DNA of 64,000 nucleotides from Lacunisphaera limnophila (lineage in GTDB: Bacteria > Verrucomicrobiota > Verrucomicrobiia > Opitutales > Opitutaceae): the NCBI RefSeq assembly GCF_001746835.1, contig NZ_CP016094.1, positions 3,673,501 to 3,737,500 on the forward strand, written 5' to 3'. Shown one piece after another: positions 8,519 through 64,000 of this stretch. How positions within the stretch are numbered: position 1 is the first letter of the stretch; every line of letters starts with the position of its first letter. The notes under the pieces were generated by a model. That model saw only the letters and a program-made list of their open reading frames with translations. It had not been told where the DNA came from and ran no database searches. A program made the position numbers and the translations under genes.

Positions 8519-9088
8519 TCAGCGGTTCGCGTAGACATTGTCCGCGTTGCCCGGGGCCGCAACATCGGGAAATCCACCTGATAACAGGGTGGCCGTGCCG
8601 GTCTCATCCGGACCGGCTGAGGCCAGGACATACGAGGGGTTGGTCCAACCCGGCAGCACCCGGTAGGCGTACCGGTACGGCTGCCCCCACGGATCCAACA
8701 ACACCGCGGATTCCTGCACAAAAGGATCGGCGCTCACGGCAAACCGCGCCGTCTCGATCTGGGCGCGGCCGGTGATCGCTTCCTGGTTCGGTCCGCGCCG
8801 GCCGATCAAGGCCTGGAGCAGATGCGCGGAATCGATCGTGCGCGGATAATCACCTTGGACCGTCTTGTAGGATTCCAAGGCGGAGGCCAGCACCGCCAAC
8901 TCCGCCCGCGCCCGGGCGATCCGGCCCTTCTCCGTCGCACTCTGACCCACGGCGATCACGATGCTCGTCAGGATGGCGATGACCCCGATGACGGCCAGCA
9001 ACTCGAGCAGGGTGAAGCCGCGCTTCCAGCTCGGCCCGGCCCGCAACCGCAGGTCCCGTGATGAAAGCTGTTGGAGTGATTGTCGCAT
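8519..9088 (-). CDS. GspG-like major pseudopilin, first gene of operon
   Basis: A 189-residue protein with the motif WKRG/FTLLELLAVIGVIAILTSI. It has the GspG hallmark LDPWGQPYRYAYRV followed by YVLASAGPDETGT, the loop that in GspG binds calcium and stabilises the fibre. Its leader is 24 residues and lacks the obvious palindromes seen in the next four genes. It heads the minus-strand operon of six prepilin-like genes. The assembly ATPases and membrane platform expected to drive it (GspE, GspF, PilT) are about 20 kb away on the same strand. No secretin gene or prepilin peptidase gene was seen in the window. Confidence 0.82.
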   Translation of the reverse strand: MRQSLQQLSSRDLRLRAGPSWKRGFTLLELLAVIGVIAILTSIVIAVGQSATEKGRIARARAELAVLASALESYKTVQGDYPRTIDSAHLLQALIGRRGPNQEAITGRAQIETARFAVSADPFVQESAVLLDPWGQPYRYAYRVLPGWTNPSYVLASAGPDETGTATLLSGGFPDVAAPGNADNVYANR

Positions 9089-9134
9089 GCGGGCCGGGGG
9101 CGGTCAGACACCGGCCGGCCCGCCCCGGTTTCGG

Positions 9135-11093
9135 TTATTCGTCGGATTGCAGGGCGGCAATGACCGAGAAGTCCTCCAGCGTGGTGGTGTCACCCTTCAC
9201 GCTGCCGTTCGTCGCCAGCTCCTTGAGCAGCCGGCGCATGATTTTACCCGAACGCGTCTTCGGCAGGCCGGCGGCAAAGCGCACCTGGTCAGGCTTCGCC
9301 AGCGATCCGATCTCCTTGCCGACATGCGCCCGCAGGGCCTCCTTGAGCTCCTCGCTCGCGGTGGCCGTGGACTTCAGGGTCACGAACACCACCAGCGACT
9401 GGCCCTTCAGGTCGTCGGGCTTGCCCACGGCCGCGGCCTCGGCCACGGCCGGGTGCGACACGAGCGCGCTCTCCACCTCGGCGGTGCCGATGCGGTGACC
9501 GGAGACGTTCAGCACATCGTCGATGCGGCCGATGACCCAGAAATAACCGTCCTTGTCCTGCCGGGCGCCGTCGCCCGTGAAATAATAGTGCGGGTGCTTC
9601 GGGAACTCGGAGAAATAGGCCTTCTTGTAACGCTCGTCGTCGCCCCAGAGCGTACGGAGCATCGAGGGCCAGGGCTGGGTGATGACGAACTTGCCGCCGG
9701 AATTGCGCGGCACCTCCTTGCCATCCGAGTCCACGACCATCGGCTTGATGCCGAAGAACGGCAGCGTGGCCGAGCCCGGCTTGGTCGGGGTGACGCCGGG
9801 AATCGGCGTCACCATGATCGAGCCCGTCTCGGTCTGCCACCACGTGTCGACGATCGGGCACTTCTTTTTGCCGATCATCTTGTGATACCACATCCAGGCC
9901 TCGGGATTGATGGGTTCGCCGACCGTGCCGAGCAGGCGTAACGAGTCGAGGCGGTGCCGCAGCACGTAGTTGTCACCCCAGCGCATGAAGGCGCGGATCG
10001 CCGTCGGGGCCGTGTAGAGGATGGTCAGACCATGGCGGTCGATCATCTGCCAGAAGCGGTCGGGCTCCGGCTGATTGGGCGCACCCTCATAAAGGAAAAC
10101 AGTCGAGCCGTTCGAGAGCAGGCCGTACACGACGTAACTGTGGCCGGTGATCCAGCCGATGTCCGCCGAGCAGAAATAGCGGTCATTCTCCTTCAGGTCG
10201 AAAACGTAGTGCGAGCTGAGCTTCGCGCCGAGCAGGTAGCCGGCCGAGGTGTGCAACACGCCCTTCGGTTTGCCGGTGGAGCCGGAGGTGTAGAGAATGA
10301 ACAGCGGGTGTTCGGAATCGAAGGCCTTCGCGTCGTGGTAATTCGGGGCGCCTTCCCAGGCCTCCTTCCACCACACGTCGCGACCCTCGACCATCGTGAC
10401 CGGGTTGCCGCAACGCTTCACGACCATCACGCTGTGCACGCAGGGCGCGCCCGCGACGGCCTTGTCGACGTTGGCCTTGAGTTCGATCACCTTGCCCCGG
10501 CGCCAGCCACCGTCGGCGGTGATCACGAGCTTCGCCTGGCAGTCATTGATGCGGTCCTTGATGGCCTCCGCACTGAAACCGCCGAAAATCACCGTGTGCA
10601 CCGCGCCCACCCGCGCACAGGCGAGCATGGCGATGACCGCCTCCGGAATCATGGGCATGTAGATCGCGACGCGATCCCCCGCCTTGATGCCGAGATTCTC
10701 CATGAAGTGGGACATCCGGCACACATGGAAGTGAAGCTGGCGGTAGGTGATCGTGCGCACATCGCCCGGCTCACCTTCGAAAATCAGCGCCGCCTTGTTC
10801 TCGCGGGCCGTGCCGATGTGGCGATCCAGGCAGTTCTCGGAAACGTTTAACTTACCGCCCAAGAACCACTTGGCATGCGGCGGCTTCCACTGCAGGACCT
10901 TCTTGAAGGGCTTGCGCCAGACGAGCTGCTCGTTGGCCTGTTTCGCCCAAAACTTTTCTGGAGCGTTGACAGACTCAGCGTACATCCTACGGTAAGTCTC
11001 GAAACTACCCAGGTTTGCTTGGTTCTTGAATTCAGCCGATGGTTTGAAAATCCGGCTTTCGCGAGACACCGAGGTAATCGTTTGGTCCGTCAC
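9135..11093 (-). CDS. acsA: acetyl-CoA synthetase
   Basis: A 652-residue AMP-forming acetate-CoA ligase, the full length of the family. It activates acetate to acetyl-AMP and then to acetyl-CoA in the cytoplasm. Visible motifs are YTSGSTGKPKGVLHT (the phosphate loop, about residue 270), TWWQTETGSIM, YFTGDGARQDKDGY with the hinge Asp, and the C-terminal RSGKIMRRLL whose Lys is the usual acetylation site that switches the enzyme off. The start is GTG at 11093, chosen because GAGGAG lies seven bases upstream on the minus strand. It is divergently transcribed from a rho-like gene. No sirtuin or acetyltransferase gene is adjacent. Confidence 0.96.
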   Translation of the reverse strand: MTDQTITSVSRESRIFKPSAEFKNQANLGSFETYRRMYAESVNAPEKFWAKQANEQLVWRKPFKKVLQWKPPHAKWFLGGKLNVSENCLDRHIGTARENKAALIFEGEPGDVRTITYRQLHFHVCRMSHFMENLGIKAGDRVAIYMPMIPEAVIAMLACARVGAVHTVIFGGFSAEAIKDRINDCQAKLVITADGGWRRGKVIELKANVDKAVAGAPCVHSVMVVKRCGNPVTMVEGRDVWWKEAWEGAPNYHDAKAFDSEHPLFILYTSGSTGKPKGVLHTSAGYLLGAKLSSHYVFDLKENDRYFCSADIGWITGHSYVVYGLLSNGSTVFLYEGAPNQPEPDRFWQMIDRHGLTILYTAPTAIRAFMRWGDNYVLRHRLDSLRLLGTVGEPINPEAWMWYHKMIGKKKCPIVDTWWQTETGSIMVTPIPGVTPTKPGSATLPFFGIKPMVVDSDGKEVPRNSGGKFVITQPWPSMLRTLWGDDERYKKAYFSEFPKHPHYYFTGDGARQDKDGYFWVIGRIDDVLNVSGHRIGTAEVESALVSHPAVAEAAAVGKPDDLKGQSLVVFVTLKSTATASEELKEALRAHVGKEIGSLAKPDQVRFAAGLPKTRSGKIMRRLLKELATNGSVKGDTTTLEDFSVIAALQSDE

Positions 11094-11200
11094 AAGTTTC
11101 TCCTCTGAGGTTATTGGGGGTTGAAGCTAAGCGTTTTGAGAAATGCCCCCGACGGATTGCGCGGTCAAGCCCAGGCAGCATCCCACCCACCCGTATTTGT

Positions 11201-12376
11201 ATGGATAAAGAAAATCCGCCGGCCGCTCCCCTTGAGTCGCAGGCTCCCACTCCCGCCCCGGCCCCGCCGGAAAACACTATCCGTGTCGAAGGTATCCTCG
11301 ACATCGATAACAGCCGCAACGGCCAGTTGCTGGACCTGAATAAGTTTGGCAAGCGCCGCCCCACGGATCCCTTCGTTCCGCGCGAGCTCATCCGCCGCTT
11401 CCACCTGCAGCAGGGCAGCATCATCACCGCCACGGCCACGCCCGACCCGCGCTTCCCGAATCCCAAGATCCGCTTCATCGAGAAGGTCGACGGTCTCGAG
11501 ATCGACGAACGCCGCCGCAAGACCGAGTTCGCCAACCTCACCACGGTCACCCCCGACAAGATGCTCCGCCTCGAGCACAAGGACGGCCGCATGACCACCC
11601 GCGTCGTCGACCTCTTCTGCCCCATCGGCAAGGGCACCCGCGGCCTCATCGTCGCCCCGCCCCGCACCGGCAAGACCACCTACCTGCGCGACATCGCCCT
11701 TGGCGTCCTCCAGAACCACCCGGAGTGCCACGTCATCATCCTCCTCGTCGACGAGCGCCCCGAAGAAGTCACCGACTTCAAGCGTTCCGTCCCCGCCGAG
11801 GTCTGGGCCTCGTCCAACGACGACCCGGTCGAGAACCATATCCGCATCGCCGACCTCTGCATCGAGCGCGCCCGCCGCCTCGTCGAGGCCGGCAAGGACG
11901 TCGTCATGCTGATCGACTCCCTCACCCGCCTCGCCCGCGCCCACAATACCGCCAAGAACTCCGGCCGCACCGGCTCCGGTGGTCTCGACGTCCGCGCCCT
12001 CGAGAAACCCCGCCAACTCTTCGCCTCGGCCCGCAACACCGAGGACGGTGGCTCCCTCACCATCATCGCCTCCATCCTCGTCGAGACCGGCTCCCGCATG
12101 GACGACATCATCTTCCAGGAATTCAAGGGCACCGGCAACATGGAGCTCGTCCTGGACCGCAAGGCCGCCGAAATGCGCATCTGGCCGGCCGTCAACATCC
12201 AGTCCTCCGGCACCCGCCGCGAGGAGCTCCTCATCGAGCCCAAGAAGCTGGAGGGCATCCACTTCTTCCGCCGCGCCCTCGTGCAGCAGAAGATCGAGGA
12301 AGCCACCGACACCATGGTCACCCGCCTGGGCAAGACCAAGACCAACGACGAGTTCCTGAAACTCATCACGAAGTAA
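11201..12376 (+). CDS. rho: divergent transcription termination factor Rho, short paralogue
   Basis: A 391-residue Rho-family hexameric ATPase. The C-terminal motor is well conserved: Walker [12 protein letters not shown] (about residue 150), [18 protein letters not shown], Walker B VVMLIDSLTRLARAHN, the R-loop FKGTGNMEL and SGTRREELL. The N-terminal RNA-binding part is degenerate: no helical Rho_N domain, and the RNP1 motif of the cold-shock-like fold (GFGFLR in most Rho) is not recognisable. I took the ATG at 11201; the frame is open to 11114, but that stretch is not Rho-like. A second, longer Rho with a glycine-rich insert is encoded at 35116-37047. Whether this short copy terminates transcription or does something else cannot be told from sequence. 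Confidence 0.88.
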   Translation: MDKENPPAAPLESQAPTPAPAPPENTIRVEGILDIDNSRNGQLLDLNKFGKRRPTDPFVPRELIRRFHLQQGSIITATATPDPRFPNPKIRFIEKVDGLEIDERRRKTEFANLTTVTPDKMLRLEHKDGRMTTRVVDLFCPIGKGTRGLIVAPPRTGKTTYLRDIALGVLQNHPECHVIILLVDERPEEVTDFKRSVPAEVWASSNDDPVENHIRIADLCIERARRLVEAGKDVVMLIDSLTRLARAHNTAKNSGRTGSGGLDVRALEKPRQLFASARNTEDGGSLTIIASILVETGSRMDDIIFQEFKGTGNMELVLDRKAAEMRIWPAVNIQSSGTRREELLIEPKKLEGIHFFRRALVQQKIEEATDTMVTRLGKTKTNDEFLKLITK

Positions 12377-12428
12377 ATTTCGCCCTTGCCCGCCTCTACC
12401 TTCACCAACCACCCTGACCGTTTCCTGA

Positions 12429-14186
12429 ATGAATAGCTTCTCCGAGCAATGCCTCGATATGGCCCGGTCGATGTTGAGCCACAATCTCGACTCGATCAAC
12501 GCCGACGGCACCGTCACCCCCATCGCCACCGAAACCTCCCGCTCCGACGAGCCGGGACACGTCGCCTTCGCCTTGGGCGAATACTACCGCGCCACCGGCG
12601 AGACCACGCTGAAGGGGCACGACCTCATCGACCTCACGGCCCGCTGCGTCACCGCCCAGGCCTTCACCGAGCCGGCCCACGAGAACGGCCTGGCCTACGC
12701 CGCCCTCGGCCTCCTCTCCTTCGGCCCCTCCAAGGAGCGCAACGCCGTCTGGGAACGCCTCGTCGAGGAGACCCGCGAGCATCTCGACAAGCTCCTGCTC
12801 ACCCGCAGCGACTACGACAATTACTGGCAGGCCTTCAACATCGCCAAGGCCGTCTGCCGCTACAGCCTCGGCCTCTCCAAGAAGGACGAGACCTCGCGCC
12901 TCATCGAGCGCATGGTCGAACGCATCGAGCAGACCAGCTCCTCCGGCTTCTTTGACGACGCCGAGAAGGGCTTCGGCGGCCACTTCAACCTGTACGGCGT
13001 GATGACTCTGTCGTTCACCCGCTCGGCCCTCCAGCTCCACGCCAACTCCGCCCTCCGCGAGCGCAAGCTCCCCACCCTTCGCACCTACGCCGAGAAGTAC
13101 ATCAAGATGATGCCTGACCTCGTCCGCGCGGACGGTCTCGGCTGGGCCTACGGCCGCTCGGCCGGCGCCTACGGCCAGATGCACTGCATCACCCTCATCC
13201 TGCAGGGCCTGCGCGACGGCTGGATCCCCGACGACCAGAAGAACAAGTATTTCGATATCCTGCGCCGCCTGTTCTACTACTTCTTCCAGACCTACCTGGA
13301 CCAGGAGCACGGCTTCCTCGACATCCGCGACGACGAACGCACTGCCTACGCCTCCCACACGACGCGCATGGCTAACTTCGACGCCGCCCGCTACCTCTGC
13401 CAGTGGGCCCGCCTCGCCAAGACCGTGGCGATGCCCGACAACGTCCGCCCCGAGCCCGCCCGCACCAGCGGCCGCTTTGTCATCTACGACAAGAGCAACC
13501 GCAAGGAGCAGGGTCTCTTCCTCTACCGCGACGCCGAGTCCGGCCTGCACGTCCAGATCCCGCTCGTCAGCTCCGGCACCGACTGCACCGCCGACAACCT
13601 CTCGTTCCCCCACTGCCCGGGCGTCTTCGACTGGCCCAACAACGTCTACCTGCCGGTCATGGTTCCCGAACTCACCTTCGGCGACCACGTCACCGTCCCG
13701 TGTTTCTACGGCCAGAAGTGCGTCACCGGCCTCGGTCTCAAGAACTCGTTCTACTTCCGCTACGAGCAGCCCGAGCTGATCAACCTCAAGGAAGAACTCG
13801 CCCGCGGCATCGGCAGCGTGAAGGTCCAGTGGGCCTTCACCGGCAGCAAGATCACCGCCGAGTTCGCCTACACGGTCAAAAACCAGATCCAGCTCGACAA
13901 GTTCCGCATGGCCCTCGTCATCGGCGCCCCGCACTCGAAGTACCGCATGGGTTCCTCGCCCGCCCTCGGCGCGCAAGGCCACCGCTGCTCGGTGCTCAAG
14001 GACGATTTCCACGCCAACTGGGCCGAGACCGAGGTCGTCACCGCCGACCCGGCCTACAAGACCAACTTCGGCAAGCTGCATTACGTGCAGACCTTCGTCC
14101 GCGATCACCCGCTCATCATGCGCCCCGGCCAGGTCTACCGCCTGTCCGTCGCCTTCGATCCGGACCTGACCGTCGTCGAGGCCTAA
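12429..14186 (+). CDS. unrecognised 585-residue protein, toroid-like N-terminal half
   Basis: I do not recognise a named family. The first ~330 residues are helical with Gly-rich turns and aromatic pairs (GEYYRATGETTLKGHDL, NYWQAFNIAKAVCRYS, GWAYGRSAGAYGQ), a pattern seen in alpha/alpha-toroid carbohydrate enzymes. The remaining 250 residues look beta-rich (LFLYRDAESGLHVQIPLVS, FYFRYEQPELINL). This arrangement recalls polysaccharide lyases or glycoside hydrolases with a toroid plus beta-sandwich, but no catalytic set could be assigned. There is no signal peptide, so it would act in the cytoplasm. It starts 52 bases after the short rho and could be co-transcribed with it. A strong terminator follows. 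Confidence 0.55.
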   Translation: MNSFSEQCLDMARSMLSHNLDSINADGTVTPIATETSRSDEPGHVAFALGEYYRATGETTLKGHDLIDLTARCVTAQAFTEPAHENGLAYAALGLLSFGPSKERNAVWERLVEETREHLDKLLLTRSDYDNYWQAFNIAKAVCRYSLGLSKKDETSRLIERMVERIEQTSSSGFFDDAEKGFGGHFNLYGVMTLSFTRSALQLHANSALRERKLPTLRTYAEKYIKMMPDLVRADGLGWAYGRSAGAYGQMHCITLILQGLRDGWIPDDQKNKYFDILRRLFYYFFQTYLDQEHGFLDIRDDERTAYASHTTRMANFDAARYLCQWARLAKTVAMPDNVRPEPARTSGRFVIYDKSNRKEQGLFLYRDAESGLHVQIPLVSSGTDCTADNLSFPHCPGVFDWPNNVYLPVMVPELTFGDHVTVPCFYGQKCVTGLGLKNSFYFRYEQPELINLKEELARGIGSVKVQWAFTGSKITAEFAYTVKNQIQLDKFRMALVIGAPHSKYRMGSSPALGAQGHRCSVLKDDFHANWAETEVVTADPAYKTNFGKLHYVQTFVRDHPLIMRPGQVYRLSVAFDPDLTVVEA

Positions 14187-14204
14187 GTCCGGCACTCCTC
14201 ATTG

Positions 14205-14234
14205 TAGGGCGGGGTTTCCAAACCCCGCCTTTTT
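14205..14234 (+). terminator. Rho-independent terminator
   Basis: GGCGGGGTTT-CC-AAACCCCGCC (14208-14229) is a perfect 10-bp stem with a two-base turn, followed by five T. It lies 20 bases after the unknown 585-residue protein gene. Confidence 0.7.
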
Positions 14235-14407
14235 CATGCCCGGTTACCAGCACCCCTGGAGCGCAGGCGACCCCGCCCGCGAAAGATCGCGTCAACACTC
14301 CGAAGATGAACCCCGCGCGCCCGCTATTCCAAACCCACACCCGGCCCGCGCTCCCCTTTCTTAATTCATCCTTCTTCCTTCTTACTTCCTACTTCTTCCT
14401 TCCGCCT

Positions 14408-15883
14408 TCACTTCTCTAGCGCCGCCTCAATCTGCCGGCTCGCCGAGCGCAACACCTCCAGCCGCGCATAACGCTTGTTGTCCGCCGGCACCAATTGCCA
14501 CGGCGCATTAACCGGGTCAGTCAGCGCGAGCATGTCACCCACCGCCACTTCGTACGCCGCCCGCTGCCGGCGGTTGCGCCAGTCCTCGGCATTGAGCTTG
14601 TGCCGCTTGTGCGGGGTCGCCTCCCGCTCGCGGAACCGACGCAGTTGCTCCGCATGCGACACATGCAGCCAGTATTTCAACAGGATGACCCCGTGGTCGG
14701 TCAGCTGCCGCTCAAAGTCATTGATCTCCGCGTAGGCCCGCCGCCACTCGTCCTCGCGGCAAAATCCCTCGATGCGCTCCACCAGCACCCGCCCGTACCA
14801 GGAGCGGTCAAACACCGTCATCCGGCCGTTCCGCGGCAAGTCCCGCCAGAAACGCCAGAGGTAGTGCGCGTGTTTTTCCTCCTCGGTGGGTTTTGCCACC
14901 GGGATCACGCTGTAGTCCCGGGGATCGATGGCACTGGTGAGGCGCCGGATGGCCCCGCCCTTGCCCGCCGCATCCCAGCCCTCAAAGGCCATGACAATGG
15001 ACCGCCCGGAGGTCAGCGCCGCCCGCACCGCCCGGTTCAACCGGCCGAGCCACTTCTCGCGTAACGTATCGTAATCCTTGGCCGTGAGGTCCTGGTCCAG
15101 CGGAAGGGCGTTCAGCCGCCGCAGGCCCGCCGGGCGCAGCGGCTTGACGCGAGCCGGCGCCTTCGTCCGCGGCAGTTTGGCCATCCGCTTCAGTTGCTGA
15201 TTAAATCGGGTCAGGAGCAGGCGTCCGACCGCCAGGTCACGGGCCCGCTCGTCCTCGGCGTCAATGATCGTCCAGCGTGCGCCCGGCCGGTCGGTCTTCT
15301 CCCGGATCAGGCGCGCCGTCCGGTCCATGCGGCCATAGATGCGATGATGATGCCAGTCCTCGTCGCTCACGCGCCACGCCGTGGCCGGGTCGGACCGCAG
15401 CGTGCGCAGCCGGCGACCCTGGGCCTCTTGGGAGAGATGCAGCCAGACTTTCACGATCAGGGTCCCGCCGTCGACCAGCACCTGCTCGAAATCCCGGATG
15501 CGCTCCGCCTCGGCGGCCACCGCACTCAGGGCCCGCCGGTTGCGGGCCTCGCTGCGCAAGGTCTCGGTGTACCAGGACCCGGCATATAACCCGATCCGTC
15601 CGATGCCCGGCAAACTGCGCCAGAAGCGCCACGCGTGCGGGTGCGCCCGCTCGTTGTCCGTCGGCGGATGCCACGAAAAGGTCTCCACCCCGCGGGGATC
15701 GAGCCACTCCGCCAGGGTGTTCAGCAGGCTGCCCCGTCCGGCCCCCTCCGGCCCGGCGATGATCAGCAGGACCTTGAAGGGCGCCTGCTTCAGGCCGAGT
15801 TGCAACTGCACCAGTTGCGGCCGGAGCACATCGGCCCGGGCCTGGTACACTCGCTTCGCCATGCGCTGCTTTGCCTGGGCCAT
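14408..15883 (-). CDS. pap: two-domain PPK2 (polyphosphate:AMP phosphotransferase type)
   Basis: A 491-residue protein made of two PPK2 domains in tandem, the layout of class II PPK2 (Pap), which phosphorylates AMP to ADP with polyphosphate. The C-terminal domain (about 265-490) has an intact Walker A, FEGWDAAGKGGAIRR, and the lid/DRSWYGRVLVERIEGF motif. The N-terminal domain (about 20-240) has a degenerate loop, AGPEGAGRGS, and lacks the DRSWY motif, having AGSWYTE instead; it is probably structural, as in known Pap proteins. It is divergent from the single-domain PPK2 gene, with a 135-base intergenic region that carries AATGTTACA (15939-15947), a word seen again before ppk1. Confidence 0.88.
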   Translation of the reverse strand: MAQAKQRMAKRVYQARADVLRPQLVQLQLGLKQAPFKVLLIIAGPEGAGRGSLLNTLAEWLDPRGVETFSWHPPTDNERAHPHAWRFWRSLPGIGRIGLYAGSWYTETLRSEARNRRALSAVAAEAERIRDFEQVLVDGGTLIVKVWLHLSQEAQGRRLRTLRSDPATAWRVSDEDWHHHRIYGRMDRTARLIREKTDRPGARWTIIDAEDERARDLAVGRLLLTRFNQQLKRMAKLPRTKAPARVKPLRPAGLRRLNALPLDQDLTAKDYDTLREKWLGRLNRAVRAALTSGRSIVMAFEGWDAAGKGGAIRRLTSAIDPRDYSVIPVAKPTEEEKHAHYLWRFWRDLPRNGRMTVFDRSWYGRVLVERIEGFCREDEWRRAYAEINDFERQLTDHGVILLKYWLHVSHAEQLRRFREREATPHKRHKLNAEDWRNRRQRAAYEVAVGDMLALTDPVNAPWQLVPADNKRYARLEVLRSASRQIEAALEK

Positions 15884-46158: not shown

Positions 46159-46178
46159 TGGTGCCCCCACGGGGAATC
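46159..46178 (-). other. tRNA 3'-end remnant, putative attachment site
   Basis: TGGTGCCCCCACGGGGAATC read on the minus strand is GATTCCCCGTGGGGGCACCA: the T-loop end, T-stem, acceptor half and encoded CCA of a tRNA gene. The sequence to the right no longer continues into a tRNA, and the integrase gene begins 70 bases further. This is the pattern of an attachment-site copy left when an element inserts into a tRNA gene. The intact tRNA should be at the far end, beyond the window. Confidence 0.55.
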
Positions 46179-46247: not shown

Positions 46248-47666
46248 GTGTGGCTTTTTTCGGACGTGGCTCGCAAATCAGAATACCCGCGGACGATCAT
46301 TGTAGGCAGTGCGATTGTAAAGATCTACAGGGTGAAGCATCGGCGTGGGCACGATGGCTACCTCTACACTGTGGCCTACAAGACGCCGAGCGGAGATAGA
46401 AAGACTCCGCAGTTCGCCGATCCTGCCGAGGCCGAGAAAGAGGCCAGGCTGCGCGCCTCGCAGATCGCCAAGGGCCACGCTGAGTCAGTAGAGATGACAA
46501 AGTCCGACCGGGAGGAATGGCTCGCGATCAAGCGCACCGCAGGGGACACTCCCCCACTTGCGGCCATACGGGAATGGGCCAAGGCCCGCGAACTATGCGG
46601 GGATCAACTCTTGGCCGCTGCGAAGGCCTGGCACGGCGTTGGAGGGAGCTTTACGCCCATCCTAGCCGAGAAAGCGGTAGATGAGTTCATCGCCGCTGTG
46701 GAAGCGACAGGCAAGCAGGGCGAGGCAACTTACAGGGCCAAGTTGAAGCCCATTGCTACGGCTTTCGCGGGCCGCGAATTGCACTCAATTACCGCGCCCG
46801 AGTGGACCGCCTACCTGGCACGTTGGACTGATGGTGTATCTCAAAACGACCACCGCAAACGTACCATCGCCTTGTGTAGGTGGGCGCAAAGGAATGGCTA
46901 TATCCCTAAACTGAGTGAACTGGAGGTTGGCTACACCCTCAAAGCTAAGGAGAATATGCCCGAAATTGGCATTATCACTCCAGAGGCTCTCGGGCAACTG
47001 CTAGTCTACATTGACACAAACCACCCGCGACACTTGCCCGCGTTGGTGTTGGCCGCCATGGCCGGGTTACGGGCCGCGGAAATCCACGGCTCGCGGAAGG
47101 ACCGGAATCTTCGGCAGCTCTGGGCGGATATTCACCTGAATCCTGAACGGGTTGGCGGTAGGGCGGAAAAGCCATTCGTTCGTGTGACGCATGCAAAACC
47201 CAACACCCCTGCCTGGCGTCATGTGCCCCTCTGCCCGGCCGCCCGGTCATGGCTGGAGCCGTATTGGAACTCCCGGAAACCTTCGGCTTCCAGCCTACCT
47301 GCAGCAATGGAGCGGGTCCGTGACATAGCCATCACCCTAGGCCTGGATTTGCCCGACAACTGCTTTCGTCATTCCTATATCACCTATCAGGTCTCACTCA
47401 CCGGCAGTAAGGCCCAGGTGGCCCTGTGGGCTGGCACCTCAGAAGTCCGAATTGATCGGCACTACCGGCGCCCTGTGACCGAGGCGGCGGCCAAAGGGTG
47501 GTTCGGAATGACCAGAGAGGCTGCAATGAAACTCCCCAAACTCAGTGCTCCCGAGGCGGACTATTCGGCCATGGGTAAGGTTGGTGGTAGTGTGATCAGT
47601 GAGGCGAAGAAGGCAGCGGCCCGTAAACGTTTGGCAGGTGAGGCAGCGCTTGTTGATGGCGAATAG
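46248..47666 (+). CDS. int: tyrosine recombinase (integrase) of the element
   Basis: A 472-residue site-specific recombinase. The N-terminal part (about 10-230) has the SAM-like core-binding domain; the catalytic domain begins near 240. Active-site candidates: Arg275 in AMAGLRAAEI, Arg374 in NCFRHSYITY, and Tyr406 in IDRHYRRP. Two usual His positions differ: the box II His is Asn371 and the GHS-type His is Thr397, as in several integrases from this phylum. Starts with GTG; 46248 or 46266 (18 bases later) are both possible. It is the first gene of the element and faces into it. Confidence 0.85.
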   Translation: MWLFSDVARKSEYPRTIIVGSAIVKIYRVKHRRGHDGYLYTVAYKTPSGDRKTPQFADPAEAEKEARLRASQIAKGHAESVEMTKSDREEWLAIKRTAGDTPPLAAIREWAKARELCGDQLLAAAKAWHGVGGSFTPILAEKAVDEFIAAVEATGKQGEATYRAKLKPIATAFAGRELHSITAPEWTAYLARWTDGVSQNDHRKRTIALCRWAQRNGYIPKLSELEVGYTLKAKENMPEIGIITPEALGQLLVYIDTNHPRHLPALVLAAMAGLRAAEIHGSRKDRNLRQLWADIHLNPERVGGRAEKPFVRVTHAKPNTPAWRHVPLCPAARSWLEPYWNSRKPSASSLPAAMERVRDIAITLGLDLPDNCFRHSYITYQVSLTGSKAQVALWAGTSEVRIDRHYRRPVTEAAAKGWFGMTREAAMKLPKLSAPEADYSAMGKVGGSVISEAKKAAARKRLAGEAALVDGE

Positions 47667-54053: not shown

Positions 54054-55014
54054 TGGCCACCTCCGGGAGCAGCGACTGCTTCAAGGATTCCCGCAGCGAC
54101 TCAATGAAGCTGTTCGCATCAAAGGCGCGCTTGCCCTTGGTCCTGAGGATCCATTCCCCATCGACGCCAGTGGGCTGCAGGCCATGGCTCACCATCGACT
54201 CCCGATATTTGGGATGAGCGACGACGACAAGGATATCGCCTTGCCGCCGGACCTCGCAATCAGGGCCGTTGTAGAGGTAGGCGTTATCGATGCCATCCGG
54301 CTCAACAACATAGGTGAGGACCGGGATGGCCGGCGCCTCGGCTGGAGCGGGTGCGTCGGCCGGCTGCTTAACATCGGCGGGCAGTTCCTGACTGAGCCGG
54401 GAACGGGCCGCCGAGATCTGCTGCCGGTTGATGAGATCGAGAACCTCCGCAGCGAGTTGCTGGAGCTTGCTCTGCTTCGGCACCGGCGGTTGTTCGCCAA
54501 GGACGATGCGGACCGCCCGCTGGACCTGCTTCGCATCCGGCGCTCCAGGGCCGGAGGCGCTGACGGCGATACGCCAGGCCTCCAGCTTCTGCTCAGCGGT
54601 GGATAGCCGCTTGAGCGGCCGGAGCGAATCGAGACTGGCCGGTTGAACCGGTTCGTCTGCGATCGGCATCCAGCTAACAGCGGCCGCTGCCAAGCAATTG
54701 GCATAGACCTCGGAGATGTCGTAGTTGTCCTTCACGTAGACCTGGAAGGTCTGCTTCTTTTTAAGGAGCCGATGAAGCTTCGCCTGCTTCGTGAAGAGCA
54801 GGATGAGCCCGAGGATCAGGCCCATGGCGACAGCGTGAGCCGAGGTGGACACGTGCTGCGTGGCTATTTTGCTCGCGACCCGGAGGGCGGAGCGTCGAGT
54901 CGAGTCGTCCGCGGAAGCGAGGTCATCGACGTTGAGGCCGACTAGCGCCTTATGGGCGGCGGCCTTCTTCTTTAGTATATCCGCAATTGAAGCGGACGGG
55001 ATGGGATTTGTCAT
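54046..55014 (-). CDS. membrane protein of the element
   Basis: A 322-residue protein with one clear membrane helix at about residue 60-80 (AVAMGLILGLILLFTKQ). The long soluble C-terminus includes Pro/Ala linkers (ADAPAPAEAPAIPV) and a folded end with LTYVVEPDGIDNAYLYNG and GILVVVAHPKY-like strands. Start ATG 55014 chosen because the short N-terminus then precedes the helix cleanly; the frame extends to 55041. Function unknown; in position it could be a mobilisation or conjugation accessory. Confidence 0.55.
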   Translation of the reverse strand: MTNPIPSASIADILKKKAAAHKALVGLNVDDLASADDSTRRSALRVASKIATQHVSTSAHAVAMGLILGLILLFTKQAKLHRLLKKKQTFQVYVKDNYDISEVYANCLAAAAVSWMPIADEPVQPASLDSLRPLKRLSTAEQKLEAWRIAVSASGPGAPDAKQVQRAVRIVLGEQPPVPKQSKLQQLAAEVLDLINRQQISAARSRLSQELPADVKQPADAPAPAEAPAIPVLTYVVEPDGIDNAYLYNGPDCEVRRQGDILVVVAHPKYRESMVSHGLQPTGVDGEWILRTKGKRAFDANSFIESLRESLKQSLLPEVANA

Positions 55015-58171: not shown

Positions 58172-58591
58172 CTATTGAAAGTTTCCGTGCCCTACCCCGA
58201 CCAGGTATGACTTCACCTCAGCGCGACCGACCTTGGTCTTAGCCAGCCGAGCAGGTATCCGTCCCCGAAGCGCAGAGCACGGGGTTTTCATCCACCATGC
58301 GGCGGATCTATCGTGGGGGAAAATGCTGCGCACCAGGTCCGGTAAGGTTTTTAAAAGGTCGGTATTGCGCACTACCACCTGGCGGACCGTGTCCAGGTCC
58401 ATCATCTCTCCTTCGATGGCGGCCGACGCGACGACCGATTGAGCCATCAACCCAATGTGCATCTGCTCCGCTATCGATCGCCCGTAGAATCCGCGCACGA
58501 TCCTGTCAGCAAGGCGCCTAGCTTTGGCCGGCGATGCAACAGGAAGTTGCTTGGCGAGCTTGCCTAATTGGACTGCGGTTTTTCTTTTCAA
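58172..58591 (-). CDS. Xre/MbcA/ParS-type antitoxin-like protein (orphan)
   Basis: A 139-residue protein. The C-terminal ~40 residues match the toxin-binding domain of the Xre/MbcA/ParS family: AAWWMKTPCSALRGRIPARLAKTKVGRAEVKSYL shortened here, with the typical W-x-x-x-P, GR-P-x-x-L and GR-x-V spacing. The N-terminal part is helical. The start is TTG at 58591, which overlaps the stop of a 49-residue upstream frame (TTGA). No RES or other matching toxin gene is next to it, so its partner is missing or elsewhere. Confidence 0.6.
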   Translation of the reverse strand: MKRKTAVQLGKLAKQLPVASPAKARRLADRIVRGFYGRSIAEQMHIGLMAQSVVASAAIEGEMMDLDTVRQVVVRNTDLLKTLPDLVRSIFPHDRSAAWWMKTPCSALRGRIPARLAKTKVGRAEVKSYLVGVGHGNFQ

Positions 58592-59367: not shown

Positions 59368-60480
59368 TCAACCTCGTGCCTTCCGGTAGGCGGCCAGCAG
59401 GTAGTTGGTCAAAAGCGCGATATCCCTCGGTGTGTTCTGAATATCATTCCACTTGCGACGAATGTCCGGCGCCAGTTCCCATTCGCCTTCCGTCCAGGCG
59501 CAGGCGCGCGCGATCTTATTCAGTTCACGACGGAACGCAGCTTGGCGGTCATTCTTGGAGTTGCCGACGGTGTGCGCAATTTCTTCCATCAGGTAGCCGA
59601 TGGCCAGCATGCCGCAACCGTGCGTGAGACGGGATTTTTTCGGCGCCAATTTCCAGGCAGCATCGAACGTATCGGCCACGGCCGACCAATAGTCGAAAAG
59701 AAAGGCTAGCATCTCCTTCTCTGCTTTGGCCTCTGAGTTCAGCGTCGCGATCTCATACAAGGCCCCGTCGCGGAAACTGTGTTCAAGCATGCGCAGCACT
59801 GCTGAATATGAAATCACCCCACGTGGGCAGGTCGGCATCCGGATGCGACCCTTGAACGGGGAATCCGGATGGGCGTTCAACACGCCGGCGACTCGTGCCG
59901 GTTCCCGCTTGCTCATTAATTGTCGAGAAAGCACGCCCTCGGTGGCGGGTAGCAATTCGAAGATCAGGTCTTTCGGCAGTGGCTTCGCGGAGTTTACGCG
60001 CACAAAATGTTCTCGTTGCTCGCTCTCGCTAGCGGCAACGAAGCCGACGACGCAGATAGGGAAAGACTTAATATCCGCTTCGCGGATGGCGGCCGTGCGT
60101 TGCTGGCCGTCAACAATCCAACCCGGCCTCGGCAATTCCGGGTCTTCGGGCGTGGGGATTCGCAGAATACCAATGCGGCCCGGTCCGTCCTCACCTTTCA
60201 GGTCGAGCGCGCTGAACTTTACCGAACCGTTGAAGGCCACCACAATGGCGTTCGGAATCATTGGATTTTCGGCCGTTTCAAGATAGCCTCGGATTTCCTT
60301 GATGTGATTCAGGACTTCCGGTCGTTGATAACCAAACAGCGTCGTCTTGTCGTCCCGCCCCACCCTGGCGACCGTCGCGAAGTCGGCAATATGTTTGCCG
60401 TCTATGGCGAAGCAAAACAGCCGATGTTTCGGCTTTGTGCCCTGGGTGTATTCGATGGCAGGAACTTCTAGGTGACGCAT
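59368..60480 (-). CDS. DGQHR-domain protein, DpdB-like (copy 1)
   Basis: A 370-residue protein of the DGQHR family (ParB/DndB-related), with FGYQRPEVLNHI near residue 50 and the core motif PGWIVDGQQRTAAI (DGQQR at 124-128). The following FVRVNSAKPLPKDLIFELL segment is also conserved in both copies here. DpdB is required with DpdA for 7-deazaguanine insertion into DNA and is thought to use ATP. It is the last gene of a minus-strand operon, nine bases after dpdA. ATG 60480. The second copy (61766-62938) is only distantly similar, so the duplication is old. Confidence 0.75.
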   Translation of the reverse strand: MRHLEVPAIEYTQGTKPKHRLFCFAIDGKHIADFATVARVGRDDKTTLFGYQRPEVLNHIKEIRGYLETAENPMIPNAIVVAFNGSVKFSALDLKGEDGPGRIGILRIPTPEDPELPRPGWIVDGQQRTAAIREADIKSFPICVVGFVAASESEQREHFVRVNSAKPLPKDLIFELLPATEGVLSRQLMSKREPARVAGVLNAHPDSPFKGRIRMPTCPRGVISYSAVLRMLEHSFRDGALYEIATLNSEAKAEKEMLAFLFDYWSAVADTFDAAWKLAPKKSRLTHGCGMLAIGYLMEEIAHTVGNSKNDRQAAFRRELNKIARACAWTEGEWELAPDIRRKWNDIQNTPRDIALLTNYLLAAYRKARG

Positions 60481-60489
60481 GGTATAAAA

Positions 60490-61752
60490 TTATTTCCGCA
60501 GTCCACGATCGGTGGCCAGCAGTTTGCGATAAAATGTGTCTAGATTGTGGAAACCGCGGCGACGATTTCGCTCCGCGCCCCGAAATACAATTACGTCATA
60601 CCCGATTTTCTTGCAGATATCGCACGGGCAGGCTTCCCACGGACGGTTGGCGAGCGTATGTCGGTATTCTTGTTCGCGGGCTTTGATTTTCAGCGGGTTG
60701 CCCTGGATGTCCTCATCATACATCACCGTATAGTCCATGAGCAGTTTGAGCGTTTCGTCCAATGCCACTTCAGTCGATGCGTAGGCGCGTAGAGCGGCCA
60801 GCGAACTACGCTCGAGTTTGATGGCCGCCGTTTGATTCACCTCGCCGGCCAGGATCCGCGCCTTCAACTTCGCATTGGCGTCGACCTGAGGAATCCGCAG
60901 GGCGATAAAGTTCTCCTTGGAGGTCTGATAGTTATCCTTCGCGCTCTTGAATGCCTGAAGCAACGGCGCCGTACTGTCGAAACTCGCAGCACCATAGCGG
61001 GAGAAATCGAAAATCTTCTCGAGGCGGGTGACACCCAAAAGATGAAACTTCGTCGTATTTTTTCGAACTTCCGACACTCGCTCCATCACCTGCAGGATCT
61101 CGGTAGTCTTGAGCGGGACCAGGCCGCCCATGGCGATGTAGTCATAACCCATCTTCTGAAGTTTGGTGACCGAGTCGGCGTAAGAGTCAGGACTCCATCC
61201 TTGAGCCACTCCCATGGGTGAGAAGGAACATCCTTTGCTTCGTTTCCAAAACTGCGCGGCTAGGTCGAGGGTGAGTTCGCGACGACGGTGGGCTTCGGCC
61301 GCCGCTGGATCCTGCTTCCTCGCCTTGGGCTTGTCCCACTCCGAGCGAAAAGCCAAAATGACATGATCCACGGAGATGCCGTAGGTGAATCCACACTGGT
61401 CGTAAAAGTGGACGACCTCCTCCACGGTGTAGGGTGGTTCGGGGTCGTCGCGGTAGGAAAACGCACCGCAGTCACCGATCACCTTCATGTCTTTCGAACC
61501 CGCTGTTTCATCGAGGCGCAGAAACTTTCGCACGCCGAGGCGCAATAGCCGCTGCTGCTGTGCCAGCGTATAGCGGGTCTTAACAATCGCCTTCGAAACC
61601 AGCATGCCATCGTAAGGCGGACGCTTAAATAGTTCGTGGGCGTAGGCGTCTGTGCGCTGGCGCATCCGGTCGGTAGCCCGTTCCTCGCGAACAAAGTCGA
61701 AGTTCGGGTCCACCAAGTCTTGAGCGTCGGGAAGATAAAATTGCATACGCAT
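60490..61752 (-). CDS. dpdA: DpdA-like DNA transglycosylase (TGT family)
   Basis: A 420-residue TGT-fold protein. GDCGAFSY (93-100) supplies the base-recognition Asp94 and SVDH at 127-130 is conserved. GGL at 209-211 and HLLGVTR (237-243) line the base pocket. Asp259 in ASFDST sits where TGT has its nucleophile. The zinc site CPCDIC (375, 377, 380) with His402 follows. This is the DpdA branch, which swaps guanine for preQ0 in DNA, rather than tRNA TGT, inferred from its neighbours and insertions. ATG 61752 or 61746. PreQ0 must be made by genes outside the window. The two DGQHR genes flank it. Confidence 0.85.
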   Translation of the reverse strand: MRMQFYLPDAQDLVDPNFDFVREERATDRMRQRTDAYAHELFKRPPYDGMLVSKAIVKTRYTLAQQQRLLRLGVRKFLRLDETAGSKDMKVIGDCGAFSYRDDPEPPYTVEEVVHFYDQCGFTYGISVDHVILAFRSEWDKPKARKQDPAAAEAHRRRELTLDLAAQFWKRSKGCSFSPMGVAQGWSPDSYADSVTKLQKMGYDYIAMGGLVPLKTTEILQVMERVSEVRKNTTKFHLLGVTRLEKIFDFSRYGAASFDSTAPLLQAFKSAKDNYQTSKENFIALRIPQVDANAKLKARILAGEVNQTAAIKLERSSLAALRAYASTEVALDETLKLLMDYTVMYDEDIQGNPLKIKAREQEYRHTLANRPWEACPCDICKKIGYDVIVFRGAERNRRRGFHNLDTFYRKLLATDRGLRK

Positions 61753-61765
61753 GAGCTAATGTCTC

Positions 61766-62938
61766 TCAGTGACCGGACGTCCTCCGTTCCACATAGGTTC
61801 TCAAAAGAAAATTCGTCAGGCCCCGAACGTGTCGGGAGACGTTCTCGAGTTCATTCCATTGCAGGCCGAGTCCCTCCCAGTTGCCCTCTGTCCAACGGCA
61901 AAACGGCTGGATGACTTCGAGTTCCGCGACCACTTCGTCCACCGCATTACTCGCACGGAGATCAATTTGTGGCATGATGCGGTCCATCAATCGCGACATC
62001 GCCGTTAGACCGGCGCTGTGCATCAGTCGACTCTCGCACGGCGGGCGTCCCCATGCTTCCGGAAACACGCGTTTCACCGCCAACCAATAGGTCATGACCG
62101 TCAGCCAAATCCGGTCCACATCGGCATCGTTCGACGCGAGATTGCGGAAGACAAAAAGACAGCCGGAGGGCTGCACGAGGCTCTCGCGCAGGGCCTTGAG
62201 CAGCGGGCCGTCCGGAATCACACGGTGCTCTTTATCCGCCTCGCTCGTCGAGGCCCGCTTGATCAGACCAAAGAAAGGCGAATCCTTCTCGCTATTGAGG
62301 GAATTAAGCAGCGCGGACGGCAGACGACTGGCCGAGGTGTTGCCCGTGATCGGCGCCGATACTTCCGGCAGAAGTTCCGTGACCAATCCACGCGGCAGCG
62401 GCCTAGAATTGTTGATGCGAAGGAATTGATCGCGCTGGCGCTCGATATTGTCCGTTATGAAGGCACACACGGGGATTGGTAGTCCGGTTCGCTTGCTCTT
62501 AGAAACCGCGAGTGCCCGTTGTTGACCATCCACGATCCAACCCGGCTTCGTTTCTGCTGAATCTCCGGGAACCGGAATGAATAAGTCCCCCGCCTTCGAT
62601 AGGCCGTCGGTCACGTTCGGCCCGCGACTGCCTACGAACCTCACCTTCGAACTAAACGCAACAATTACGGCGTGGGGAAACAAGACATCCGGACCATCAA
62701 GGTACTCCACGATGTCACGCACGTGGCGCTTTACCTCGGGTCGCTGGTAGCCGATTAGCTTACCCGCCTCGTCACGGGAAATGCGAGACACGTCGGCCAC
62801 GGCAAGCAGTTCCTCGCCCGTAAGCGCAAACAGGTAGATATCGGAGTTTTCACTTTGCGCCAATTGCAGCACCCGCCGCTTGAGCGTAGTTTTTGGCTTC
62901 GATGGAGATTCCGGTTGCTCTGATTTGTTGCGCGCCAT
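61766..62938 (-). CDS. DGQHR-domain protein, DpdB-like (copy 2)
   Basis: A 390-residue protein with the same plan as copy 1: GYQRPEVKRHVRDIVEYL near residue 64, core PGWIVDGQQRALAV (DGQQR at 137-141) and FLRINNSRPLPRGLVTELL. The C-terminal ends of both copies also align (AWTEGEWELAP and RWTEGNWEGLG with later TNYLL/TNFLL), so both are full length. It has a 20-residue Lys-rich N-terminal tail absent in copy 1. ATG 62938; two bases from the preceding gene and 13 bases before dpdA. Two DpdB-like subunits around one DpdA could form a mixed complex. Confidence 0.75.
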   Translation of the reverse strand: MARNKSEQPESPSKPKTTLKRRVLQLAQSENSDIYLFALTGEELLAVADVSRISRDEAGKLIGYQRPEVKRHVRDIVEYLDGPDVLFPHAVIVAFSSKVRFVGSRGPNVTDGLSKAGDLFIPVPGDSAETKPGWIVDGQQRALAVSKSKRTGLPIPVCAFITDNIERQRDQFLRINNSRPLPRGLVTELLPEVSAPITGNTSASRLPSALLNSLNSEKDSPFFGLIKRASTSEADKEHRVIPDGPLLKALRESLVQPSGCLFVFRNLASNDADVDRIWLTVMTYWLAVKRVFPEAWGRPPCESRLMHSAGLTAMSRLMDRIMPQIDLRASNAVDEVVAELEVIQPFCRWTEGNWEGLGLQWNELENVSRHVRGLTNFLLRTYVERRTSGH

Positions 62939-62940
62939 GG

Positions 62941-63900
62941 TTAGAGGTTATTTTTGACCGCCGTGTGCAGCTTGCGAAACCGAGTTTGTTCGCACGCAAA
63001 GCCCGCCCTCCGAAACCGCGCGAGCAAAGGCGAGGCCGTGAGGTCGGAGTTCTTTCGGAGTGCGGATTGAATAAAGCGACTCACCTGGTCGTCAGTTTTA
63101 CCCGTCCGCACAGGAAACGGTCTGATGTGCGCGCGCAGAGGCTTAAGGGTTGCGGCTGCCAGCTCGACGTCTGCTGCCCGGCGATGTAGTTTTTTGGCGA
63201 GAAACAGGCCAGCTCGGGCTAATACGGTACCCCGGGTGCCGCCCAATGCCCGATAGAGGTCGCCGGAAACGTCCACGACCCTCGGCATCCGGCGAACAGC
63301 GGCGGAAGTTGGAGTAGCCAGCACAATTGTCCTAGCCAGGCCCTCCTCGTCGCGGAGCAAAGCATCGAGGTCGCCTAAAACAGCCGCCATGTAAGCGGCA
63401 GGCAGCGCTATAATATGAGTCGACTGGCGATACTTCTTTACCGTCGCGTGCAGGGATCGCGGCCCGGTCCACGGACCGGGCCATTGGTTGAGCAGGCTCC
63501 ACCAGTCTCGGTTGCGCTGAACCGCTCCCCGAGGACCGCTGATCGCATTTGCAGCGCCAGGGGCAAAGGTGGCATCGTAGGCCGGCACCAAATTGTCGGG
63601 CGCGAGCAATCCGAGACCGGCGGAAACGATCCGGATTTCCACCCCTCCGCGCCGTAAAGCGGCGTGCTCGGTGCGTAGCTCTTTCCAGATGCCGCCGCCG
63701 TAAAGGTCGATTGCTCTCACCCAGGATTTAGAAGGGGTACCCTCGACCGCTTTCTGCCACCGGCCCATTACCTCCACCAGTGGATCCCCGTTCTTGGGCG
63801 CAGCGGCCGTCCCCAACGCCAAATGGCTGCCAGCAATTCCGCGTTTGGTCAGGGAACAGGAGAGATACACGAAAACTGCTGGTGAATCTTTGGGGGGCAC
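62941..63900 (-). CDS. DUF6884-like protein, first gene of the DpdA operon
   Basis: A 319-residue protein. The N-terminal half resembles DUF6884-type proteins: VYLSCSLTKRGIAGSH (Cys-Ser near residue 14), RAIDLYGGGIWKELRTEH and IRIVSAGLGLLAPDNLVPAYDATF. The second half (about 180-319) has a helical region and basic end. Its role is unknown; the fold has been likened to base-recognising enzymes, so action on a modified base or on DNA is possible, which is speculation. GTG start at 63900. It is two bases from the DpdB-like gene. DpdC (which converts preQ0 in DNA to ADG) is not clearly matched by it. Confidence 0.6.
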   Translation of the reverse strand: MPPKDSPAVFVYLSCSLTKRGIAGSHLALGTAAAPKNGDPLVEVMGRWQKAVEGTPSKSWVRAIDLYGGGIWKELRTEHAALRRGGVEIRIVSAGLGLLAPDNLVPAYDATFAPGAANAISGPRGAVQRNRDWWSLLNQWPGPWTGPRSLHATVKKYRQSTHIIALPAAYMAAVLGDLDALLRDEEGLARTIVLATPTSAAVRRMPRVVDVSGDLYRALGGTRGTVLARAGLFLAKKLHRRAADVELAAATLKPLRAHIRPFPVRTGKTDDQVSRFIQSALRKNSDLTASPLLARFRRAGFACEQTRFRKLHTAVKNNL

Positions 63901-64000
63901 ACTGCAATTTCTTAGGCCATACTATTTGATGCAACTGTAATTTAGCCGGCGTTTCCCCTAAAATCTCAAGCCGTGCTTTCCAAGGCCTGCAAGAGCGCTG
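63901..64000 (-). promoter_or_regulatory. upstream region of the DpdA operon
   Basis: AT-rich compared with the operon, no gene seen. It should hold the operon promoter. The window ends here, so more genes of the system may follow. Confidence 0.35.

What the first reader, a model, noticed from the sequence alone, without database searches (positions are those of the whole stretch)
59368..63900. DpdA operon with two DpdB-like proteins and a DUF6884-like protein on a mobile element
Four tightly spaced genes (gaps of 2, 13 and 9 bases) place a TGT-fold protein with the DpdA features between two different DGQHR proteins, led by a DUF6884-like protein. Known dpd clusters carry one DpdB; a pair of divergent ones suggests a hetero-complex. 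The operon lies in an element with its own integrase, so it may be a transferable DNA-modification and defence unit with an unusual composition.
Basis: partly seen in the sequence, partly recalled or inferred. Interest (0 to 1): 0.9.

Follow-up and report, generated by a model that had tools for sequence, protein, structure and literature searches.

The report
Mobile Dpd island with paired DpdB
These genes are one end of a complete, mobile bacterial defence island of the kind that marks its own DNA with a modified guanine; its two DpdB genes are an old pair seen in other such islands too, so the system is of a known kind with a few unstudied extras.

Summary
The four genes are real and correctly placed: dpdC, dpdB1, dpdA, dpdB2. 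They end a 16-gene co-directional run that continues past the window: queC-queD-(membrane+HAD protein)-queE-folE2-dpdE-F-G-H-(I)-dpdJK-dpdD-dpdC-B1-A-B2. It carries its own preQ0 genes and all dpd functions (dpdI mainly by position; dpdJ and dpdK fused). It sits in an 86.4 kb element bounded by a 20-bp repeat of a tRNA-Glu end, next to an integrase; a same-genus genome shows the empty site. DpdA is a DNA transglycosylase relative (PDB 7UI4, 381 bits), not a tRNA TGT. B1 copies form one supported clade; B2 copies lie with single DpdBs, so the pair is old and kept in order. A heteromeric DpdB complex is plausible but untested. The least-studied piece is a PycTM-like membrane + HAD protein, fused here and split in four rhizobial dpd islands. 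New member of a known kind.

The parts
59368..60480 (-). dpdB2, 370 aa: DpdB of the downstream / single-copy group
   Evidence: PADLOC DpdB PDLC02811 449.6 bits; lies with downstream and single DpdB in trees; DGQQR motif intact
60490..61752 (-). dpdA, 420 aa: DNA-guanine transglycosylase family
   Evidence: PADLOC DpdA 551.3 bits; PDB 7ui4 381 bits; split 100/100 from the genome's two other TGTs; D94, D259, C375, C377, C380, H402 invariant in 3 aligned DpdA
61766..62938 (-). dpdB1, 390 aa: second, upstream-type DpdB
   Evidence: PADLOC DpdB PDLC02811 432.6 bits; in the upstream clade, 14 rows, 100/100; DGQQR intact
   Evidence: PADLOC DpdC 130.2 bits, E 2.3e-38; a dpdC hit (26-77 bits) lies upstream of B1 in 14 of 14 other two-DpdB loci
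63966..64000 (-). 3' end of dpdD; the rest of the cluster (dpdD to queC) runs on to extended window position 86157 (genome 3737466-3759657)
   Evidence: PADLOC DpdD 249.7 bits; gene list in the full report
46159..46178 (.). left attachment repeat (20 bp) of the integrated element; the right copy is the 3' end of tRNA-Glu(ctc) at genome 3806089
   Evidence: exact 20-bp repeat; tRNA-Glu found at the right copy; sequences read
46248..47666 (+). integrase of the element, 472 aa; tyrosine type inferred from C-terminal motifs (recalled)
   Evidence: PHROG phrog_1 integrase E 7.5e-14; translation read; no Pfam hit at 0.01; adjoins the left repeat

Best explanation
This is the modification end (dpdC-B1-A-B2) of a complete 7-deazapurine-in-DNA (Dpd) modification-restriction island carried on an 86.4 kb integrative element in a tRNA-Glu gene. 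By family knowledge, FolE2, QueD, QueE and QueC make preQ0, DpdA exchanges guanine in DNA for preQ0 with help from DpdB, DpdC converts dPreQ0 to dADG, and DpdD-K act against DNA that lacks the mark. The two DpdBs are an old paralogue pair in fixed order around dpdA; most likely they act together as a heteromeric ParB/sulfiredoxin-type NTPase that loads or targets DpdA. Shown here: gene content, homology, order, the separate B1 clade, the element's ends and the empty site. Inferred: chemistry, restriction activity, and the joint action of B1 and B2. The confidence is for the island; for joint action of B1 and B2 I would give about 0.5.
For: Profiles for DpdA, B (two), C, D, E, F, G, H, J and K. 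preQ0 genes by Pfam: QueC 212 bits, PTPS 88.5, Radical_SAM 36.2, GCHY-1 308.9. DpdA to PDB 7ui4 over 2-413, 381 bits. 23 DpdA rows split from the genome's own two tRNA TGTs 100/100. Order C-B1-A-B2 in 14 other loci; in 14 of 14 the upstream copy scores higher with window B1 and the downstream copy with window B2. Upstream clade 100/100; DGQQR kept in 14 of 14 upstream and 22 of 22 other rows. Weak ParB/Noc/sulfiredoxin fold match of B1. Ends and empty site.
Against: No chemistry or phenotype was measured. The 245-aa dpdI candidate has no PADLOC hit of its own. The B1 model is of middling quality (pLDDT 76.5, pTM 0.51); none of 268 PDB matches reaches E 0.001, the best has E 0.007 and TM-score 0.17 over the query, and sequence searches of B1 and B2 find no solved relative. 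In 7 of 19 DpdA-selected loci the B1/B2 queries find no DpdB in the DNA read, so DpdB is not universal. On the DpdA tree the two-DpdB loci are not one clade (4 changes, bootstrap 2-5) and two loci without DpdB fall among them. The DpdB trees are unrooted because the outgroups were too distant.
Confidence: 0.9

Rival explanations
1. B1 and B2 are not partners but two separate helpers, each steering DpdA to different sequences, so the island has two modification specificities.
For: Both keep the DGQQR motif and match the DpdB model nearly end to end; many columns conserved in the B1 clade differ from the rest.
Against: One DpdA and one DpdC only; strict order in 14 of 14 other two-DpdB loci suggests joint use; no specificity data.
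Confidence: 0.25
2. B1 is a regulator that limits modification or its expression, as DndB is proposed to do in Dnd systems, while B2 alone helps DpdA.
For: DndB is proposed as a negative regulator (PMC12839542, passage read; PMC4507180 title and abstract start seen in a listing); single DpdBs lie with B2.
Against: Both proteins match the DpdB model at over 430 bits, and the PADLOC DndB model not at all (B1) or at 17 bits (B2).
Confidence: 0.2
3. The TGT-fold protein is a tRNA-modifying enzyme and the cluster serves queuosine.
For: It scores just above the Pfam TGT cut-off, and queC/D/E genes lie in the same run.
Against: The genome has two other TGTs scoring 507 and 486 bits against about 25; DpdA splits from them 100/100; its only PDB sequence match is a DNA-guanine transglycosylase; it lies among dpdC-K.
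Confidence: 0.02
4. The island is intact in sequence but silent or non-restricting in this host.
For: No expression data; no other genome of the 387 sampled in its phylum has a DpdA-model match at E 1e-20, so the element is rare there.
Against: The 16-gene run has open frames throughout, with gaps of -4 to 65 bases.
Confidence: 0.15

Closest known systems
dpd island of the E. coli / Salmonella Montevideo type (E. coli GE3 read here, L033)
   Same: dpdC-A-B plus dpdD-K beside a tRNA gene and an integrase (dpdC annotated hypothetical there, 47 bits to the window's); DpdA close to 7UI4
   Different: One DpdB there, two here; in the stretch read only queD of the preQ0 genes; dpdJ and dpdK separate there, fused here; no membrane+HAD hit there
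two-DpdB dpd islands of alphaproteobacterial plasmids (Agrobacterium vitis CG957, Sinorhizobium americanum CCGM7, Bradyrhizobium sp. 41S5 and others)
   Same: C-B1-A-B2 order with que genes; four of the nine carry the membrane and HAD genes
   Different: There queE-queD-queC follow B2 and the membrane and HAD parts are two genes; here the modification genes end the run and the two parts are one 515-aa protein
two-DpdB loci in Verrucomicrobia MAG UWPOB_VERRUCO3 (L006), Archangium lansinium (L007), IMG/VR contigs L042 and L043, phage record MT835580.1 (L069)
   Same: C-B1-A-B2; window B1 groups with the L006, L007 and L042 copies (99/93)
   Different: L043 and L069 show no dpdD-K hit in the DNA read (12.9 and 21.1 kb); L042 has D, K and J on the other strand
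Dnd (phosphorothioate) DndB
   Same: Distant Pfam DndB family (55 and 86 bits)
   Different: PADLOC DndB 17 bits or none; DpdB model over 430 bits

Membership tests
Dpd modification-restriction island | DpdA-type TGT-fold protein distinct from tRNA TGT | tested here: met
   551 bits to DpdA model; 7ui4 381 bits; tree split 100/100
Dpd modification-restriction island | DpdB with intact DGQ-R motif | tested here: met
   Two copies, 433 and 450 bits; DGQQR in both
Dpd modification-restriction island | DpdC | tested here: met
   130 bits, E 2.3e-38
Dpd modification-restriction island | dpdD, E, F, G, H, J, K | tested here: met
   J and K in one 1709-aa protein
Dpd modification-restriction island | dpdI | tested here: inconclusive
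   245-aa ORF in the dpdI place; no PADLOC hit; 35 bits to a Shinella protein that itself hits DpdI at 2.7e-6
Dpd modification-restriction island | preQ0 source | tested here: met
   folE2, queD, queE, queC in the same run
Dpd modification-restriction island | dPreQ0 or dADG in host DNA | not testable with these tools
   needs LC-MS/MS
Dpd modification-restriction island | restriction of unmodified DNA | not testable with these tools
   needs a transformation assay
tRNA TGT (queuosine) | groups with tRNA TGTs | tested here: not met
   About 25 bits against 507 and 486 for the genome's other TGTs; tree
Dnd system DndB | best match to DndB over DpdB | tested here: not met
   DndB 17.2 bits (B2) or none (B1) against DpdB 450 and 433
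Integrative element at a tRNA gene | direct repeat at a tRNA 3' end, adjoining integrase, empty site in relatives | tested here: met
Integrative element at a tRNA gene | excision or transfer | not testable with these tools
   needs PCR across the joined ends or a mating test

The most novel reading that the evidence does not exclude
By content dpd islands come in one-DpdB and two-DpdB forms, and in the second an old dedicated paralogue B1 forms an obligate heteromer with B2 around DpdA. Some of these islands also carry an unrecognised component, a PycTM-like membrane segment with an active HAD phosphatase, which acts as a membrane effector or a nucleotide-handling arm of the system and is a single fused protein here.
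Probability: 0.25. Interest if true: 0.6.

Novelty: new member of a known kind. Interest (0 to 1): 0.4.

Why it matters
[quoted passage not shown] two natural paralogues with fixed places around dpdA give a direct way to test it by removing one, the other or both. The island is self-contained (its own preQ0 genes and full restriction set) on an element with defined ends, so it is a clean test case. The linked membrane+HAD protein is a candidate extra component of Dpd defence that the dpdA-K naming does not cover.

Tried and rejected
Rejected: the idea that two DpdB is unusual (and the loci); a recent duplication (33.6% identity; separate clades); a degenerate B copy (DGQQR kept in 36 of 36 rows); a broken dpdF (my ORF picker dropped it and showed an antisense frame there, probably because its longest frame overlaps dpdE by more than my 60-base limit; the 840-aa frame is intact).

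Led nowhere: three distant DGQHR/DndB outgroup rows had branches of about 6 to 7 changes per column and could not root the tree. The scan of genome contigs with DpdA gave only 2 loci. The viral scan with the DpdA alignment gave no relative. Holding the downstream DpdBs as one clade is rejected (p-AU 5e-08): single DpdBs lie among them. The solved-structure search with B1 gave one chance-like row (a titin construct, E 0.0041), with B2 none, with DpdC two rows at E 0.28 and 0.83.

Rows dropped: of 25 plasmid records, 8 weak haloarchaeal TGT rows (under 80% cover) were not counted among DpdA loci. 'No DpdB' means no hit of window B1 or B2 (E 1e-4, 1e-3). Two of those seven loci, L027 and L031, do have a gene annotated DndB or DGQHR near dpdA that the queries do not reach, and L027 and L032 are cut at the record start. 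DpdB without a DpdA hit in the DNA read (L020, L021, L022, L044, L045, L046, L070) are not counted as dpd loci. L069 was not put in the trees. L047 and L048 (14-18 bits) were left out.
Full report
What was checked. The four ORFs are at the stated coordinates on the minus strand with gaps of 2, 13 and 9 bases. PADLOC profiles name them dpdC (130 bits), dpdB (433 bits, called B1 here), dpdA (551 bits) and dpdB (450 bits, called B2).

Beyond the window. The window is G000:C1:3673501-3737500 of a single-contig 4.2 Mb genome. I fetched adjoining stretches. The same strand carries, upstream of dpdC (genome coordinates): dpdD 3737466-3739724, a dpdJ-dpdK fusion 3739721-3744850, a 245-aa ORF 3744852-3745589, dpdH 3745586-3748690, dpdG 3748693-3749637, dpdF 3749634-3752156, dpdE 3752153-3755452, folE2 3755464-3756279, queE 3756280-3756960, a 515-aa membrane+HAD protein 3756963-3758510, queD 3758510-3758953 and queC 3758950-3759657. 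All 16 genes point one way, with gaps from -4 to 65 bases. The 245-aa ORF has no PADLOC hit, but it lies where dpdI lies in E. coli and scores 35 bits to a Shinella protein that hits the DpdI model at 2.7e-6; I call it a likely dpdI.

DpdA. The only PDB sequence match at E up to 1 is 7ui4, 'DNA-guanine transglycosylase', 381 bits over residues 2-413; PMC12137116 (passages read) names 7UI4 as Salmonella Montevideo DpdA. D94, D259, C375, C377, C380 and H402 are invariant in three aligned DpdA; that these match the catalytic and zinc residues of TGTs is recalled, not tested. The own genome has two other TGT genes at 507 and 486 bits against about 25 for DpdA, and 23 DpdA rows split from those two with 100/100 support.

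Two DpdBs are not unusual. [quoted passage not shown] the passage does not say to which of the two sets the 801 belongs. Of these 19, 11 have two DpdB, 1 has one, and 7 have no hit of window B1 or B2 in the DNA read. Two of the seven, L027 and L031, have a gene annotated DndB or DGQHR nearby that these queries do not reach, and L027 and L032 are cut at the record start. One E. coli locus, of 159 of 5,426 genomes with a near match, was read and has one DpdB. Three more two-DpdB loci came from searches with DpdB itself: two IMG/VR contigs and one unverified phage record. In all 14 other two-DpdB loci the order is C-B-A-B, and in 14 of 14 the upstream copy scores higher with window B1 and the downstream copy with window B2.

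Trees. With 29 rows, and again with 36, all upstream copies including window B1 form one side of a branch at 100/100 (12 rows, 14 rows). Downstream and single copies lie together on the other side, mostly unresolved at the base, and a tree with the downstream copies held as one clade is rejected (p-AU 5e-08). So B1 is a distinct old paralogue and B2 belongs with the single-copy DpdBs. The root is not placed because outgroups were too distant. Against a simple picture of two lineages: on the DpdA tree the two-DpdB loci need 4 changes (bootstrap 2-5), and Acetobacter and Methylorubrum DpdA, which have no DpdB hit, fall among the alphaproteobacterial two-DpdB rows, so the pair has been gained or lost more than once. 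DGQQR is kept in 14 of 14 upstream and 22 of 22 other rows: neither copy looks dead. A shallow AlphaFold2 model of B1 (6 sequences, pLDDT 76.5, pTM 0.51) finds Noc, ParB and sulfiredoxin chains among its best PDB matches, but weakly (0 of 268 matches at E 0.001; best E 0.007, TM-score 0.17 over the query; RAG1 chains also appear). This fits, without proving, the description of DpdB as a ParB-like ATPase (PMC12839542, passages read).

The mobile element. G+C in 4-kb blocks is 0.50-0.64 from about 3721 to 3805 kb, and mostly 0.64-0.70 outside (one block at 0.61 in the window's left part; the edge blocks are 0.62). Comparing 2.5 kb at the left edge with 109 kb to the right, the longest exact repeat is 20 bp, at 3719659 (window 46159) and 3806089; the next is 16 bp. 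The right copy is the 3' end of an intact tRNA-Glu(ctc), and the left copy adjoins an integrase. The copies are 86,430 bp apart. Of 21 genomes of the genus (own included), 18 match the left flank and 21 the right. In G677 the left-flank match ends at 3035942 and the tRNA-side match starts at 3036022, that is, the site is empty; in G707 they are 48 bp apart on one contig, in G701 1.4 kb apart. In G705 they are 16.9 kb apart, and in G122 they lie far apart in the chromosome, so not every relative shows a simple empty site. Within its phylum sample, 1 of 387 genomes (the own one) has a DpdA-model match at E 1e-20. In the order sample, 3 of 372 have a DpdB-model match at that level, the two others weak (83 and 77 bits).

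Extras. (a) The 515-aa protein has a weak PycTM match (PADLOC, E 3.5e-4) in its membrane part and a HAD domain (E 8e-07); DADNTLWD and GDQ...D motifs align in five proteins. In Agrobacterium, Bradyrhizobium, Rhizobium and Sinorhizobium dpd islands the two parts are neighbouring genes; the HAD parts score 82-99 bits, the membrane parts only 21-31. It is seen in 5 of 15 two-DpdB loci (window included) and in 0 of 9 other DpdA loci read. In the plasmid collection it matches 5 records, 4 of them these dpd islands; the fifth is a HAD gene with no dpd gene annotated in the stretch read. No phage record matches at E 1e-3. (b) dpdJ and dpdK are fused here and separate in the 8 other loci where a J-like and a K-like gene were both seen (L006, L013, L017, L026, L027, L028, L033, L042).

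How it most likely works. Following the published pathway (PMC11888242 and PMC12839542, passages), preQ0 is made from GTP by FolE, QueD, QueE and QueC; DpdA puts preQ0 into DNA with DpdB; DpdC turns dPreQ0 into dADG; DpdD-K form the restriction part. That FolE2 stands in for FolE here is inferred. I infer that B1 and B2 work as a heteromer, because they are kept together, in fixed places and both with intact motifs, across Verrucomicrobia, Myxococcota, Alphaproteobacteria and phage-like contigs. The alternatives (two specificities, or B1 as regulator) are not excluded.

Print check. I searched the held library for DpdA/DpdB/DpdC, DGQHR, dpd and 7-deazaguanine with other terms (listings were capped) and read passages of six papers. 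In what I saw, no paper describes B1 and B2 as paired clades or the membrane+HAD protein in dpd islands. The main dpd papers (PNAS 2016, Mol Microbiol 2018, NAR 2023, MMBR 2024) are not held and GATOR-GC's supplementary tables could not be read, so this is a limited check.

Verdict. A complete, mobile, two-DpdB dpd island: a new member of a known kind, with a few unstudied extras.

Noticed in passing
extended window 83463-85010 (genome 3756963-3758510; L003:12063-13610): 515-aa membrane (PycTM-like, weak) + HAD phosphatase protein between queD and queE; split into two neighbouring genes in four rhizobial dpd islands.
   Followed up: partly
L002:14722-19851: DpdJ and DpdK fused in one 1709-aa protein; separate in the 8 other loci where both were seen.
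   Followed up: partly
L027, L028, L029, L031, L032: Cyanobacterial and Paenibacillus plasmid DpdA proteins are about 690-716 aa, with a long N-terminal extension; L028, L029 and L032 also carry a second, small TGT-like gene. None has a hit of window B1 or B2, though L027 and L031 have a gene annotated DndB or DGQHR nearby.
   Followed up: no
L017:24024-25064: A third DGQHR-annotated protein in the Agrobacterium vitis dpd region, very divergent from both DpdBs (branch 6.8 in the tree).
   Followed up: no
L069 (phage record MT835580.1), 9063-15196: An unverified human-gut phage record carries dpdC-B1-A-B2-queE-queC with no dpdD-K hit in the 21 kb read: a two-DpdB modification set on a phage contig.
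   Followed up: partly
L070:4737-6143 (Myxococcus phage Mx4); L044, L045: DpdB-like proteins of about 470-540 aa without a DpdA hit in the DNA read.
   Followed up: no
genome 3640528-3641571 (L035) and 501877-502950 (L034): The host carries two canonical TGT genes besides DpdA; one lies in a long open frame of over 850 aa.
   Followed up: no
G705:C57:45450-62361: In a same-genus genome the two flanks of the tRNA-Glu site are 16.9 kb apart on one contig: perhaps a different insert at the same site.
   Followed up: no
window 54729-54799: ARAGORN calls a tRNA-Lys(ttt) inside the element, overlapping a 331-aa minus-strand ORF.
   Followed up: no
window 58172-58591: A small gene with an Xre/MbcA/ParS-type antitoxin C-terminal domain downstream of dpdB2; a toxin partner was not looked for.
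   Followed up: no
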